A stretch of 64,000 bases of DNA, taken from contig JAFKKG010000016.1 in NCBI GenBank assembly GCA_017305715.1, forward strand, positions 124,001 through 188,000, given 5' to 3'. A program made the position numbers and the translations under genes. The notes beneath the pieces were generated by a model. That model saw nothing but the letters and a program-made list of their open reading frames with translations, made no database searches and had not been told where the DNA came from. Of the stretch, positions 52,080 to 55,835 are shown in pieces. Source of the DNA: Hyphomicrobiales bacterium. Its GTDB lineage: Bacteria > Pseudomonadota > Alphaproteobacteria > Rhizobiales > Xanthobacteraceae. Position 1 is the first letter of the stretch. Each line of letters starts with the position of its first letter.

Positions 52080-52883
52080 ATGCAAGGCCGCAAAAGTGCG
52101 GTATTGGGAGCCGGCAAATCGCGGAAAGCTCAGGGGAAATCGTCGTTGCATAATCTGAGGTCAGCCGTTTTCATCGCATTGGTGGTGATCTGGACGCTGC
52201 TGCTGTCGCTGGCGGTGCCCCTTCTCTGGCTCGCCAATGCCGCGAGCGCGAAGGTGCGCGCGGTGTCGCAACTGTGGACGAACGGGATCGTCTGGCTGTT
52301 CAAATACGTGATCGGCCTCGATTACCGCGAGCACGGCCGCGAGAACATTCCGGACGGTCCCTGCATCATCGCCTGCAACCATCAATCGCTGTGGGAGACG
52401 GCAGTGCTGTGCGCGATCTTCCCCGATGCCAGCATCGTCGCCAAGCAGGAGCTGCGCAAACTGCCGATCGTTGGCTGGTTCCTGCACCGCTATCCGATGA
52501 TCCTGGTCGACCGCTCGGCGGGCCGGCAGGCGCTCAAGCTGATGATCGAGCAGGCGCGGGCCGCGGTCGGCGAAGGCCGCAAGGTTCTGATATTCCCGCA
52601 AGGCACGCGCCAGGCGGTGGACGAACCCATGGCATTCCAGCCCGCGGGCATCGCCGCGCTCTACACCAATCTCGACGTCCCGGTGTTGCCGACGGCGCAT
52701 AATTCCGGATTGTTCTGGGGCAAGAAGACGCTGATGATCCACAGCGGCACCATCACACTGTCCTATCTGCCGGTCATTCCACCGGGGCTCGACCGGAAGG
52801 CATTTCAGGCGAAGGTGGAGCAGGTGATCGCGGAAGAGGCGGAGAGGTTGATCAAGGCGGCCGTCGCCAAGGCTCCTGATTAG
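52080..52883 (+). CDS. plsC: 1-acyl-sn-glycerol-3-phosphate acyltransferase (PlsC family)
   Basis: An inner-membrane acyltransferase that makes phosphatidic acid from lysophosphatidic acid. One N-terminal anchor (about 65 bases after the start, FIALVVIWTLLLSLAVPLLW) is followed by motif I NHQSLWE (H-x4-E, where the family usually has D), then FLHRYPMILVDRSAGRQAL and motif III FPQGTR (family FPEGTR). The exact start is uncertain: ATG at 52080, or a TTG at 52146 preceded by AGGGGAAA just before the anchor. The 3' end overlaps the convergent TMEM175-type gene by 4 bases. Confidence 0.87.
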   Translation: MQGRKSAVLGAGKSRKAQGKSSLHNLRSAVFIALVVIWTLLLSLAVPLLWLANAASAKVRAVSQLWTNGIVWLFKYVIGLDYREHGRENIPDGPCIIACNHQSLWETAVLCAIFPDASIVAKQELRKLPIVGWFLHRYPMILVDRSAGRQALKLMIEQARAAVGEGRKVLIFPQGTRQAVDEPMAFQPAGIAALYTNLDVPVLPTAHNSGLFWGKKTLMIHSGTITLSYLPVIPPGLDRKAFQAKVEQVIAEEAERLIKAAVAKAPD

Positions 52884-53461
52884 CTCGAGCGCCGTCCCGC
52901 GAGCCAGCCTGCGACCGGCGACAAAAAGGCCAGGCACCACGTGAACTGCGCCACCTTCGGGGAGATTGAGGCGACGGCCGTGGCGATGACGAATACCAGG
53001 ATCGGGAATAAGGCCGTTGCCATCAATTGCGGGTCGCTGCGGCCTCTGAGAGCCAAAATCCACAACATCCCGTTCAGTGTGGCGATCGTCAGGAGATGAC
53101 TCCCGTAAATCACGGCGACGACGCCATCGAGCCGATAGCTGCCGTAAAGGCCGTTGGTCACCGGCAGGATGATGATCGAGAGCAGAAAAATCAGATTGAG
53201 GAACACCACCCCGCGGCTGGCCTCCGGCGCCACCGCGAGCCGCCGGTGATGGCTGAACCAGAACAGGCCGGCGACCACGAAGCTGATCGCCAGCGCGATG
53301 ACCGGCTGCGCATAGACGTTGAGAAGGTCGATCCAACCCGGTGGGCTCGCGAAACGGCTGGCCTTCGGCAAATCATAGGCGAGCAGCGTCATCGCCACGC
53401 CGAAGATGGTGTTGCTCAGCATCTCCAGCCGGCGCATTTCGAAGAGATTGATCTGCGGCAA
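52880..53461 (-). CDS. TMEM175/DUF1211 family membrane protein with altered FSD motif
   Basis: A 193-residue protein with six hydrophobic segments. It is related to TMEM175 potassium channels, where the first helix carries R-x3-FSDG-x-x-A-x-T. Here the corresponding stretch is RRLEMLSNTIFGVAMTLLAY: the arginine and overall pattern are kept, but FSDG reads LSNT. The second family block FWFSHHRRLAV is intact. Ion conduction may be changed or lost. The start is uncertain by eight residues. It is convergent and slightly overlapping with plsC. Confidence 0.8.
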   Translation of the reverse strand: MPQINLFEMRRLEMLSNTIFGVAMTLLAYDLPKASRFASPPGWIDLLNVYAQPVIALAISFVVAGLFWFSHHRRLAVAPEASRGVVFLNLIFLLSIIILPVTNGLYGSYRLDGVVAVIYGSHLLTIATLNGMLWILALRGRSDPQLMATALFPILVFVIATAVASISPKVAQFTWCLAFLSPVAGWLAGRRSS

Positions 53462-53564: not shown

Positions 53565-53618
53565 TGGTGCGGGCAGCCGGAATCGAACCGGCACAGCTCT
53601 TGCGAGCCGAGGGATTTT
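53565..53618 (-). tRNA. tRNA 3' half (Leu-like, class II), no matching 5' half found
   Basis: Read on the minus strand: AAAATCCCTCGG (end of anticodon loop and stem), a long variable arm with GCTC-GCAA-GAGC, the T arm GCCGG-TTCGATT-CCGGC, acceptor strand TGCCCGC, discriminator A and an encoded CCA. The long variable arm and the AAAATCCCTCG shared with tRNA-Leu(UAA) at 55.2 kb suggest tRNA-Leu. The group I intron abuts its 5' side. The sequence on the far side of the intron does not supply the matching acceptor (GCGGGCA) or anticodon stem, so it is a remnant or a split gene. Confidence 0.6.
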
Positions 53619-53854
53619 CTTACCAGCTACGGCTTTCGCCGCCTCGCCGTCGCGCGTGCGCGCTGGGCTCGTTTGTGGTCTGACTATACCTTCATCATGG
53701 ACGCGTTCGCGCCGTTAGATGCTGCCCGTCTAGTCTCTACACCTTCACGCCGGCCTTTCGACCGGGTGCTTGGCTCGGGATTGCCATCTGACAGGTTTCC
53801 CCGAGTTTGAGCAGTTCTGCACCCCGGGTTTCTCCGAGGGCACTCAAGTGCTTT
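53619..53854 (-). ncRNA. Group I self-splicing intron (compact, 236 nt)
   Basis: Read on the minus strand, P1 forms between exon GCACTT (53860-53855) and internal guide GAGTGC (53845-53840), with the conserved U-G pair at the splice site. The core strands CTCGGGGAAACCTG and GGCAATCCCGAGCCAAGC match bacterial tRNA-type (IC3) introns. P7 is GACTA (in GAGACTAGAC) with TAGTC (in GGTATAGTC). A GGCGGCGAAAGCCG P9 hairpin precedes the terminal G at 53619. Size matches the short tRNA introns of proteobacteria, and no endonuclease gene is inside. The 3' exon is a tRNA half; the 5' exon is not recognisably tRNA. Confidence 0.75.
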
Positions 53855-54083
53855 AAGTGCGTTTCGCCTGCCGAAGCAATTGATTTATTTAACGAAAATC
53901 GGACGTCTAAAAATTTGTGCTAAAACCGGTGTTAAAAATGGCTGATTTCCAACGTTTTTTGACCCGTTTGTGCTAAATGTCGGACAATCGCTGAAACGCT
54001 CGGCAAACACCTTGGCCAAGCACCCATCTGGGCAGGGATCTGATTAGCGTCCGAAGGACGCAACTCACCGAGCTATTTCCTGA
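53855..54083. other. AT-richer islet, no gene seen
   Basis: Base composition drops clearly here (for example 53880-53990, with runs such as AAAATTTGTGC and TTTTTTGACC). The word TTGTGCTAAA or GTGCTAAAA occurs twice. It may hold the promoter of a lost toxin-antitoxin pair. No toxin gene is visible. Confidence 0.4.
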
Positions 54084-54353
54084 TTCAGCAAAGCGCTGCT
54101 TACTGAAGCCGTAGAACAACTGATTTCCGGTGAAGTGGAAGTCGGCAAGGTTGTTCTGCGCGATTACATCAACGCGACTGTCGGCGTTGAACGACTTGCT
54201 AAGGCGACCGGCACGCCTTCTAAGAGCCTGATGCGCATGCTTGGGCCTAAGGGCAATCCTCGGGCAAGCAATTTACTTGCGATGCTTGGCAAGCTTCAGC
54301 GCGTATCTGGAGTTCACCTTGCTGTGGGAACTGGGAAGAAGCGGGCGGCCTAG
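54084..54353 (+). pseudogene. HigA-like (XRE-type) antitoxin, N-terminus broken
   Basis: From 54084 the frame reads FSKALLTEAVEQLISGEVEV then GKVVLRDYINATVGVERLAK and ATGTPSKSLMRMLGPKGNPR. This is the helix-turn-helix antitoxin family whose members normally begin with ~20 more residues. A TGA at 54081 cuts the frame, and the preceding ELFPDSAK-like sense is in another frame. The first usable start is a GTG at 54135, giving 72 residues that keep the HTH. No HigB/RelE toxin lies upstream. It is either a shortened functional repressor or decaying. Confidence 0.6.
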
Positions 54354-54640
54354 ATCGAGGCTTCCCAAACCGGGAGCTACGCTGTCTCCAGTGCATACCG
54401 CTCCTTGTTGGCTCGTCAGTGGTGGCAGCACCGGCAATAGCCTCCGCGACTATTGCCGAGGCAATGCATGCTCGGCCGCCAGCCTGCACATACGCTTTTG
54501 TACCAGGAGTAGGGCGCAAGGCCTTCTCAGATGTAGTCAGGATCGGCGACCTAAGTCTGGGCAGATAGTTCGTCGCTGTTCGGCAGAGTGACTAGCCTTT
54601 AGGGCGCCATACCCGGCCTTTGCCTTTGTCGCCGCAAGTC
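54354..54640. other. Intergenic region, no gene seen
   Basis: About 290 bases between the antitoxin remnant and a minus-strand small gene. Short frames lack ribosome sites or family character. No repeat was seen. Confidence 0.35.
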
Positions 54641-55006
54641 CTACAACTTGACAAGCTGCACAGCTTGACCCTCCTCTCGCTGAAAATTGCGTGCAAACTC
54701 CAAGACCTCGTCCACCGTTTCATTTGGGTGGAATGAAGTCACGATTTGTCGGCTCGAATCTGAGCCATCACCGACCACCAGCTCATCTATAATATCATCA
54801 ATCTTGCTCGCGTTTTCTCCAACGATAGCGATGAGCGACACGCCGTCACGGACGCACTCCTCAACGAATACGTCCAACGCATCCAAACTTGACAAGGGGA
54901 GCTGCAGAACGATCTTTTTTGCGTAAGTCACGACCGGATCAACTTTCGTTAGCTTGGATAGCCCTCGATGGAACCAACTAGTTTGTTGCGGTGACAATGC
55001 ACCCAA
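54641..55006 (-). CDS. DUF7684-like hypothetical protein, 121 aa
   Basis: The 121-residue soluble protein has alternating beta strands and helices (KKIVLQLPLSSLDALDVFVE, VSLIAIVGENASKIDDIIDE) and ends VTSFHPNETVDEVLEFARNF. This resembles the uncharacterised DUF7684 group. The start is probably a TTG at 55006 with AAGGTGAAAG before it. Lower GC than its neighbours suggests that it came with the islet. No partner is recognisable. Confidence 0.6.
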   Translation of the reverse strand: MGALSPQQTSWFHRGLSKLTKVDPVVTYAKKIVLQLPLSSLDALDVFVEECVRDGVSLIAIVGENASKIDDIIDELVVGDGSDSSRQIVTSFHPNETVDEVLEFARNFQREEGQAVQLVKL

Positions 55007-55130
55007 CTTTCACCTTTGTGCCCTCGGCTTCGGGTCATTAGCATCGCCTCGGGATGCTCTATTGGACTGATATGTCGAGGCTCGCGCGTTTACTGATCGG
55101 GAGTGTCACGAAGGTCCAAAGTGCAATCCC

Positions 55131-55217
55131 TGGTGCGGGCGGTGGGACTCGAACCCACACGACGTTGCCATCGAGGGATTTTAAGTCCCTTGCGTCTACC
55201 AATTCCGCCACGTCCGC
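55131..55217 (-). tRNA. tRNA-Leu(UAA)
   Basis: On the minus strand the sequence folds as a class II tRNA. The D arm contains GGCGGAATTGGTAGACGC, the anticodon loop is CTTAAAA (anticodon UAA) on stem AGGGA/TCCCT, a long variable arm follows, then T arm GTGGG-TTCGAGT-CCCAC, and CCA is encoded. Acceptor strands are GCGGACG and CGCCCGC, which leaves an A5-C68 mismatch where G5 would be expected. It is likely still the functional Leu(UAA) tRNA. Confidence 0.93.
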
Positions 55218-55388
55218 TTTAGTCAGAAGATCAGGTACTTAGCGCGTTTGCGGGCGAACTGGAATTGGGATAATCCGGCCCGCAAACACGTCCTTCCTTA
55301 CGGGACCGCGCAGGCCTTGGCAAAGCCTCAATGCGGACACCTGGCCCTGCTTTAGGCAATCTCAACATTGTCCGGTTACGAAAGTCCG

Positions 55389-55835
55389 ATGTCCGCTGTC
55401 TCGTCCTGTCGCCCGCCATTTTTGCGAAACCTCGCCGTGCTGGCGCTGCTCGTGTCCGGGGCGGGGCTCGCCGGCTGCGCCAGCGTCGGCGACAACATGT
55501 CATCGGCCTTCGCCGATCCCGCCAAATACGATCTGTACGAGTGCAAACACCTGCAGCCGGAGCGTGAAAGGCTCGCCGCGCGCGCAGCGGAACTGCAGGG
55601 TTTGATGGCCAAGGCGGAAACCGGCGTTGCCGGCTCTGTCGTGGCCGAGGTGGCCTATCGCAACGATCTCATCTCGACCAGGGGACAACAGAAGCTCGCC
55701 GATGAGGCCTGGCGGCGCAACAAATGCGTGTGGACCAAGCCGGAAGAGAAACCGGCCGCCGCCGCCGCAATGCCACCTGCGCCGGCGCCCGGGGTCAAGG
55801 GATCCGGCTCAAAGCCGGGCAGCGCATTGCGCTAG
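55389..55835 (+). CDS. Small lipoprotein with coiled middle and Pro-rich tail
   Basis: The 148-residue product has a lipoprotein signal ending in LAGC (Cys30). A helical region follows with YECKHLQPERERLAARAAEL, including one more Cys, and the tail is Ala/Pro/Gly-rich (EEKPAAAAAMPPAPAPGV). It should be anchored in the inner or outer membrane facing the periplasm. The ATG at 55389 is chosen over one 21 bases upstream because it directly precedes the basic N-region. Function unknown. Confidence 0.75.
   Translation: MSAVSSCRPPFLRNLAVLALLVSGAGLAGCASVGDNMSSAFADPAKYDLYECKHLQPERERLAARAAELQGLMAKAETGVAGSVVAEVAYRNDLISTRGQQKLADEAWRRNKCVWTKPEEKPAAAAAMPPAPAPGVKGSGSKPGSALR

What the first reader, a model, noticed from the sequence alone, without database searches (positions are those of the whole stretch)
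53565..53890. Group I intron joined to an orphan tRNA half
A 236-nt intron with P1, P7, the GGGAAACC and GCAATCC..GAGCCAAGC core and a P9 hairpin is seen directly on the minus strand. Its 3' exon is a Leu-like tRNA half with variable arm, T arm and CCA. Its 5' exon (53855-53890) does not provide a tRNA 5' half: no acceptor GCGGGCA, and the anticodon stem would have two C-C mismatches. Yet P1 pairs perfectly with this exon. So either the tRNA is a decayed relic while the intron kept its P1, or the intron now sits in another RNA, or the 5' half is supplied in trans.
Basis: partly seen in the sequence, partly recalled or inferred. Interest (0 to 1): 0.72.

Follow-up and report, generated by a model that had tools for sequence, protein, structure and literature searches.

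The report
Stranded group I intron tRNA relic
The orphan intron and tRNA half look like the broken remains of an intron-bearing leucine tRNA gene, of a kind that mobile DNA elements carry as a spare when they insert into and break the host's own gene; the host's intact gene still sits 1.3 kb away.

Summary
In detail: a 236-nt group I intron (53854-53619, minus; RF00028, 47.1 bits) is followed by a Leu-type tRNA 3' half and lacks a usable 5' half. Comparison dissolves the puzzle. In 23 same-genus genomes the intron sits inside a complete tRNA-Leu(UAA). The window has its own intact, intronless tRNA-Leu(UAA) 1.3 kb upstream, in the same slot as in relatives, so no 5' half is needed in trans. The orphan is a decayed second copy: only 20 nt of its 5' exon still resemble a tRNA, and it alone of 127 pattern-matched copies lacks a base beside P7.

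Following the intron outward gave more. In many Alphaproteobacteria an intron-bearing tRNA-Leu(UAA) lies just behind an integrase gene (45 of 136 loci), and the host's own tRNA-Leu(UAA) is broken in the anticodon loop before that gene (26 of 34 testable loci). One such element occupies the window's locus in a relative (G024). These elements break an essential tRNA and bring a replacement whose anticodon loop is filled by a self-splicing intron, perhaps hiding it from the integrase. The window holds a relic of this traffic. How it was left is unresolved, and the shield idea is untested.

The parts
53855..53874 (-). 5' exon remnant: last 20 nt (TCGGCAGGCGAAACGCACTT) match the D-loop/anticodon-stem end of the tRNA-Leu(UAA) 5' half at 14 of 20 positions; no likeness seen further upstream
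   Evidence: 10 of 16 positions outside ACTT; of 144 ACTT-ending 20-mers in the window (both strands) 2 reach 10, which by arithmetic are this one and the intact tRNA
53619..53854 (-). Group I intron, 236 nt, same family as the intron of intron-bearing tRNA-Leu(UAA) genes of the genus
   Evidence: RF00028, 47.1 bits; nearest relative 87% identical over exon-intron-exon; a base after ATAGTC missing here, present in 126 other pattern-matched copies
53565..53618 (-). 3' exon: tRNA-Leu 3' half (variable arm, T arm, CCA) of the TCGG type found with the intron
53875..55130 (-). 1.26-kb insert between the intact tRNA and the orphan, probably remnant of an integrative element; not in this slot in the relatives fetched
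   Evidence: an 84-bp stretch (54063-53980) resembles G118 DNA about 0.6 kb from an attachment end (E 1.2e-4; place); otherwise only short, gene-level matches elsewhere
55131..55217 (-). Intact intronless tRNA-Leu(UAA), the native gene
   Evidence: 3' half 100% identical to that of 14 of 16 intronless relatives at the same locus, 98% in the other 2
54641..55006 (-). ORF, 121 aa, weak DUF7684 similarity (below cut-off), in the insert
54135..54353 (+). ORF, 72 aa, weak similarity to an addiction-module antidote family (E 0.098, below cut-off), in the insert; relatives elsewhere in the genus
52880..53461 (-). TMEM175-family gene: downstream anchor of the locus
   Evidence: PF06736, E 1.2e-16
55368..55835 (+). 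Conserved ORF upstream of the tRNA (no Pfam match at E 0.01): upstream anchor of the locus

Best explanation
The orphan is a decayed second copy of an intron-bearing tRNA-Leu(UAA) gene stranded at an integration hotspot; it makes no tRNA. Shown: the same intron sits at the same position in complete tRNA-Leu(UAA) genes of relatives; the window's native tRNA-Leu(UAA) is intact beside it; at this very locus other members of the genus carry integrative elements that break the native tRNA-Leu(UAA) in the anticodon loop (core ACTTAAAA) and bring an intron-bearing replacement directly behind an integrase gene. Inferred: the window's 1.26-kb insert plus orphan is what is left of such an element or of a gene descended from one. 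Either a complete element joined the chromosome through the shared 3' end of the tRNA (GCCCGCACCA) and later lost its integrase and most of the tRNA 5' half, or a second element inserted in the anticodon loop of an intron-bearing native gene and restored the tRNA with an intronless 3' half. I lean slightly to the first. Inferred and untested: in intact elements the intron lets the replacement tRNA be made while splitting the anticodon-loop sequence that the integrase recognises.
For: Intron identified. Intron with both halves in complete tRNA-Leu(UAA) genes in 23 of the 24 relatives L033-L056. Intact native tRNA in the window, the genome's only match to such a 5' half at 3 mismatches. The native slot between the upstream ORF and the TMEM175 gene, and the orphan's CCA joined directly to the native downstream flank. 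Flank trees place the window with G090, which has the intronless gene; the intron state needs 7 changes on either tree, at least 5 on well-supported branches. The native 5' half is of the type (GCGGAC) found in 16 of 16 intronless relatives, against GCGGGC in 14 of 14 intron-bearing ones. Elements: a related integrase ORF upstream on the same strand in 45 of 136 intron-tRNA loci, 38 of the 45 at 33-206 bp; a broken native 5' half before the integrase in 26 of the 34 with at least 250 bp held; both ends seen in G017 and, over two contigs, in G024 at the window's locus. Decay: 126 of 127 pattern-matched intron copies keep a C that only the window copy lacks (same-strain duplicates included).
Against: No integrase in the insert, and the insert as a whole has no relative in the other 264 genus genomes searched, so its element origin is indirect. 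The intron's core pairing is not obviously ruined: 55 pairs kept and 5 broken, against 55-61 kept and 0-5 broken in 23 of 24 relatives (the 24th, L190, kept 14 and broke 14; the structure was derived from the relatives, which favours them), so 'decayed' rests on the 5' exon and one deletion. The likeness of the 5' exon to a tRNA (14 of 20) is modest. The orphan's 5' break falls close to the integrase core, which suits the second route better. In 8 of the 34 testable element loci no clear broken 5' half was found. The 45 of 136 and 26 of 34 are not counts of independent events.
Confidence: 0.82

Rival explanations
1. Second route in detail (a variant within the relic reading, so its odds overlap with it): the host carried an intron-bearing tRNA-Leu(UAA); an element with an intronless 3' half inserted at ACTTAAA in the anticodon loop, regenerated an intronless tRNA upstream, and displaced intron plus old 3' half to its far end (integrase-driven intron loss).
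For: The core ACTTAAA is shared by the intronless gene and by the window's exon-intron junction; the orphan starts near that core and abuts the native downstream flank; elements in the genus attach in this loop.
Against: The regenerated gene should keep the intron-type 5' half (GCGGGC); it has GCGGAC. The nearest relative on both flank trees is intronless. The 5' exon resembles a tRNA half (10 of 16) more than the arms of four other elements do (4-6 of 16).
Confidence: 0.35
2. Split tRNA: the intron and 3' half are joined in trans to a 5' half made elsewhere.
For: Catalytic core and P1 are largely kept.
Against: One match in the genome to a 29-nt stretch of the tRNA-Leu(UAA) 5' half with up to 3 mismatches, and it belongs to an intact gene; that gene makes the product unnecessary.
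Confidence: 0.02
3. The intron now splices a different, new RNA at this place.
For: P1 with the present 5' exon pairs at six of six positions.
Against: Five of the six exon bases are those of relatives; the improvement is one G-to-C change at -5. No other RNA family at gathering level; no other genus genome searched shares the adjoining stretch as a whole. Conservation of a reading frame or RNA across the joint was not tested otherwise.
Confidence: 0.05

Closest known systems
Group I introns of bacterial tRNA genes (Rfam RF00028; cyanobacterial and plastid trnL-UAA intron)
   Same: Same intron class and, for tRNA-Leu(UAA), the same gene (start of the abstract of PMC4476775, seen in a search listing); that the insertion point is the same is recalled
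   Different: The window copy has no tRNA 5' half; in Alphaproteobacteria the intron-bearing gene is often on integrative elements
tRNA-dependent lysogeny of mycobacteriophages (Guerrero-Bustamante and Hatfull 2024, PMC10865867; abstract, outline and passages seen)
   Same: Integrase breaks an essential host tRNA gene over a short core without rebuilding it, and the element carries a same-isotype replacement tRNA
   Different: There tRNA-Lys(TTT) and actinobacteriophages; the word 'intron' occurs once in its main text, in a reference title. Here tRNA-Leu(UAA), elements in alphaproteobacterial genomes, and a group I intron in the replacement
Genomic islands in tRNA genes with displaced fragments (Islander, PMC4383910; abstract and passages seen)
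   Same: Intact tRNA at one end and a tRNA fragment at the other; 2083 of its islands have an anticodon-centred site
   Different: The fragment here carries an intron; 'intron' does not occur in that paper's main text
Prophages in tRNA-Leu(UAA) of Sinorhizobium meliloti (PMC12429752; passages seen)
   Same: Integration into tRNA-Leu(UAA) of an alphaproteobacterium by elements with a tyrosine integrase
   Different: There the target tRNA is reported as reconstructed and without features of tRNA-dependent lysogeny; 'intron' does not occur in its main text
Model of archaeal tRNA gene disruption by an integrated element (PMC3293823; passages seen)
   Same: Links an integrase-bearing insert at a tRNA gene with tRNA fragments and an extra intron
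   Different: Archaeal introns cut by a protein endonuclease, tRNA-Thr(GGU); no group I intron or replacement gene in the passages seen

Membership tests
Group I intron (RF00028) | Covariance-model match over the core | tested here: met
   47.1 bits, E 2.4e-10, model 1-253, though 2.9 bits under the gathering score
Group I intron (RF00028) | P1 with U-G at the 5' splice site and terminal G | tested here: met
   exon GCACTT with intron GAGTGC; intron ends in G at 53619
Group I intron (RF00028) | Self-splicing activity | not testable with these tools
   needs in vitro transcription
Functional intron-bearing tRNA gene | Complete 5' half giving a cloverleaf after splicing | tested here: not met
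   no acceptor or D stem upstream; two C-C mismatches in the anticodon stem; ARAGORN finds none
Integrative element with replacement intron-bearing tRNA-Leu(UAA) | Integrase gene next to the intron tRNA | tested here: not met
   no integrase among the insert's two ORFs checked and no match to the G017 integrase at E <= 1e-60 in the window's genome; met in 45 of 136 related loci
Integrative element with replacement intron-bearing tRNA-Leu(UAA) | Native tRNA-Leu(UAA) broken at the anticodon-loop core | tested here: not met
   native gene intact in the window; broken in 26 of 34 testable related loci

The most novel reading that the evidence does not exclude
A widespread family of alphaproteobacterial integrative elements inserts into the anticodon loop of the essential tRNA-Leu(UAA), destroys it, and carries a replacement tRNA whose anticodon loop is interrupted by a group I intron. 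The intron is a shield: at DNA level it splits the integrase recognition site so that the element cannot attack its own spare tRNA, while at RNA level it removes itself. Remnants like the window's then drive repeated gain and loss of introns at the native tRNA gene.
Probability: 0.4. Interest if true: 0.78.

Novelty: new variant of a known kind. Interest (0 to 1): 0.52.

Why it matters
It would give a group I intron a use: keeping a mobile element's spare tRNA out of reach of the element's own recombinase. It would extend tRNA-dependent integration beyond phages of Actinobacteria, and explain why intron-bearing and intronless tRNA-Leu(UAA) genes alternate among close relatives. The window's orphan is itself a minor relic, but it points at the system.

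Tried and rejected
My first reading (an element inserted into an intron-bearing native gene and cured it of the intron) was the best fit until close relatives were fetched: their intronless 5' and 3' halves equal or nearly equal those of the window's intact gene, so I demoted it to a rival. I also looked for a 5' half elsewhere in the genome (only the intact gene) and for the insert in the genus (matches in 32 of 265 genomes, the window's own among them, the others short and partial).

The intron is not linked to this integrase family as a whole. A search of 397 genomes of the order by integrase alone (E <= 1e-60) gave 22 matches in 21 genomes. Two loci (L252, L254) have the group I intron, 18 have a tRNA called by Rfam within the held DNA (one, L267, cut off) and no intron at E <= 0.001, and 2 have neither. 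L252 also has the broken tRNA-Leu 5' half; L254 shows none in the DNA held. So the link seems to hold only for elements aimed at tRNA-Leu(UAA), and this unbiased sample of those is just two.

Of the 8 of 34 loci without a clear broken 5' half, one (L137) has a weak one (17 of 29) and seven have no ACTTAA site in the stretch scanned. Three further integrase ORFs lie near copies that the pattern missed (L055, L057, L077).

A control that counted good scores at all ACTTAA sites (97 of 204) was uninformative, since many such sites in the fetched loci are tRNA-Leu genes; I do not use it. The P1 tally was circular, because its pattern demanded GGACTT; I rely on the 23 loci fetched by similarity instead. 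The 136 loci are not independent: some genus loci and genome-contig loci are the same strain (for example L047 and L104), and 112 of them came from a pattern that already demands GGTAGACGCA..GGACTTAA and TTGAGTGC. Organism names for G handles are inferred from equal contig lengths (G024 with the 38,236-base contig of B. lablabi CCBAU 23086; G120 with Bradyrhizobium sp. LMTR 3).

Papers: ten searches. In the rows listed (several searches found more papers than were listed) none joins, by title or start of abstract, group I introns, tRNA-Leu(UAA) and integrative elements. The library holds open-licence papers only, so absence there is weak; the work of Williams on tRNA integration sites was seen only as a reference.

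Full report
What is there. On the minus strand a group I intron (53854-53619) is followed by a Leu-type tRNA 3' half ending in CCA at 53565. The Rfam model finds it over its full length at 47.1 bits, E 2.4e-10, slightly below the gathering score. ARAGORN sees no tRNA there but reports an intact tRNA-Leu(UAA) at 55217-55131 on the same strand.

The intron's normal home. A search of 146 genus genomes with the 341-base stretch gave matches in 102. Many are only 3' halves of intronless genes, but the best ones cover exon, intron and exon. Of the 24 relatives L033-L056 read, 23 show a complete 5' half, GCGGGC..GGTAGACGCA..GGACTT, directly before the intron, that is, a complete intron-bearing tRNA-Leu(UAA); L056 has changes in its 5' half. 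A pattern scan of named genomes (112 stretches) includes contigs of the same lengths as several of these, named Bradyrhizobium, and stretches named Caulobacter, Brevundimonas, Afipia, Rhodobacteraceae and other groups. Some are metagenome-assembled, so single names may be wrong.

The native slot. In relatives the tRNA-Leu(UAA) lies between a conserved ORF and a TMEM175-family gene, as in the window. Of the 20 stretches fetched, 16 have an intronless gene there whose 3' half equals the window's intact gene at 98-100%; G012 has only the 3' half in the DNA held; three (G253, G204, G138) have the intron. The intron-bearing genes have another 5' half: GCGGGC in 14 of 14 against GCGGAC in 16 of 16 intronless relatives and the window. 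Trees of the two flanking genes (29 and 28 rows) both put the window next to G090 (intronless; 99/97 and 96/86 support). The intron state must change 7 times on each, at least 5 times on well-supported branches; shuffled labels need about 9. Pairs with close flanks differ in intron state (G103 and G028, G253 and G054, G085 and G214). Upstream, G253 and G054 stay nearly identical to within about 20 bp of the tRNA; downstream the match resumes after the gene, with small repeats and gaps between. So this gene switches between two types again and again.

The orphan. It abuts the native downstream flank, with 1.26 kb of other DNA between it and the intact gene. The last 20 nt of its 5' exon match the tRNA 5' half at 14 of 20 positions; outside ACTT 10 of 16 match, a level reached by 2 of 144 ACTT sites of the window, this one and the intact tRNA, while four attachment arms of other elements reach 4-6. 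Beyond those 20 nt I see no likeness. A base present after ATAGTC in 126 of 127 pattern-matched intron copies is missing only here (duplicates of strains included, and strongly decayed copies would not match). The pairing core is otherwise kept: 55 pairs formed and 5 broken, at the edge of the range of 23 of 24 relatives. The perfect P1 comes from one change, G to C at -5; relatives have G there, which the tRNA anticodon stem needs.

The element behind it. In G017 the native tRNA-Leu(UAA) is cut in the anticodon loop (..GGGACTTAAAA|TTTTTT); 14.6 kb later the native 3' half resumes after ..AAAAACTTAAAATCC. Inside, right after an integrase-like gene, lies a complete intron-bearing tRNA-Leu(UAA). 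The integrase matches Pfam's phage integrase family only weakly (E 0.0078, below cut-off), so 'tyrosine integrase' also rests on my reading of its sequence and on its place. Of 136 loci with the intron-bearing gene, 45 have a related integrase ORF upstream on the same strand, 38 of them 33-206 bp away; for some of the others little upstream DNA was held or the gene is at the native slot. Of the 34 with at least 250 bp of DNA held before the integrase, 26 show a broken native tRNA-Leu 5' half there, in differing host sequences, and in none is a T loop (GGTTCGA) found in the 70 nt after the core. Eight do not show it clearly. G024 carries such an element at the window's own locus, with the upstream ORF beside one end and the TMEM175 gene beside the other, on two contigs, so the join between them is inferred. 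G094, G122 and G021 keep the intron-bearing gene near the upstream ORF with no integrase match in the 20 kb held, and G138 and G044 keep it with a decayed 3' half further on: likely stages of taming. Several other decayed copies exist in the genus, so a relic like the window's is not rare.

How it works, with what is shown and inferred. Shown: the break at the anticodon loop, the replacement gene, the intron in it. From established knowledge: tRNA-Leu(UAA) is normally needed, and mycobacteriophages that break their target tRNA depend on their own copy (PMC10865867, abstract and passages). Inferred: the intron splits the inverted repeat GGGACTTAAAATCCC that the integrase would bind, so the spare gene is not a target. 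Not shown: splicing, essentiality, integrase specificity. A broader integrase search gives 2 intron loci of 22, so the intron seems to go with the tRNA-Leu target, not with the integrase family.

How the window got its relic remains open between two routes. Insertion through the shared tRNA 3' end fits the intact native gene of one type and its intronless nearest relative. Insertion into an intron-bearing native gene fits the break near the core. I put the relic reading at 0.82 and split the route about evenly, leaning to the first.

Noticed in passing
PLSDB plasmids, e.g. L234 5001-5299 (pCTX-M3) and L235 4001-4297: 1272 of 72,556 plasmid records, mostly of Enterobacteriaceae, match an intron-bearing tRNA-Leu(UAA) (1268 of them at 60-80% identity; 1264 records over at least 80% of its length); in the two enterobacterial records viewed it lies near aac(3)-II resistance genes.
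   Followed up: partly
Phage records LR756501, LR756503, LR756511, NC_048021 (Gordonia phage Daredevil): Stretches of the G017 intron-bearing tRNA-Leu match 6 phage records, including two of 735 kb.
   Followed up: no
window 55131-55217: The native tRNA-Leu(UAA) has an A-C mismatch in its acceptor stem, and the 16 relatives with GCGGAC have nearly the same sequence; it may itself be an old hybrid of two genes.
   Followed up: no
window 53905-53985: TTTAGCACAAA occurs twice close to the orphan, possibly integrase arm sites (read).
   Followed up: no
L062-L069: Eight further loci of the genus have an intact tRNA-Leu(UAA) with an extra, sometimes partial, 3' half 0.8-14 kb downstream; in 6 of 8 it starts within 3 nt of the start of the 3' exon: other elements using the same hotspot.
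   Followed up: partly
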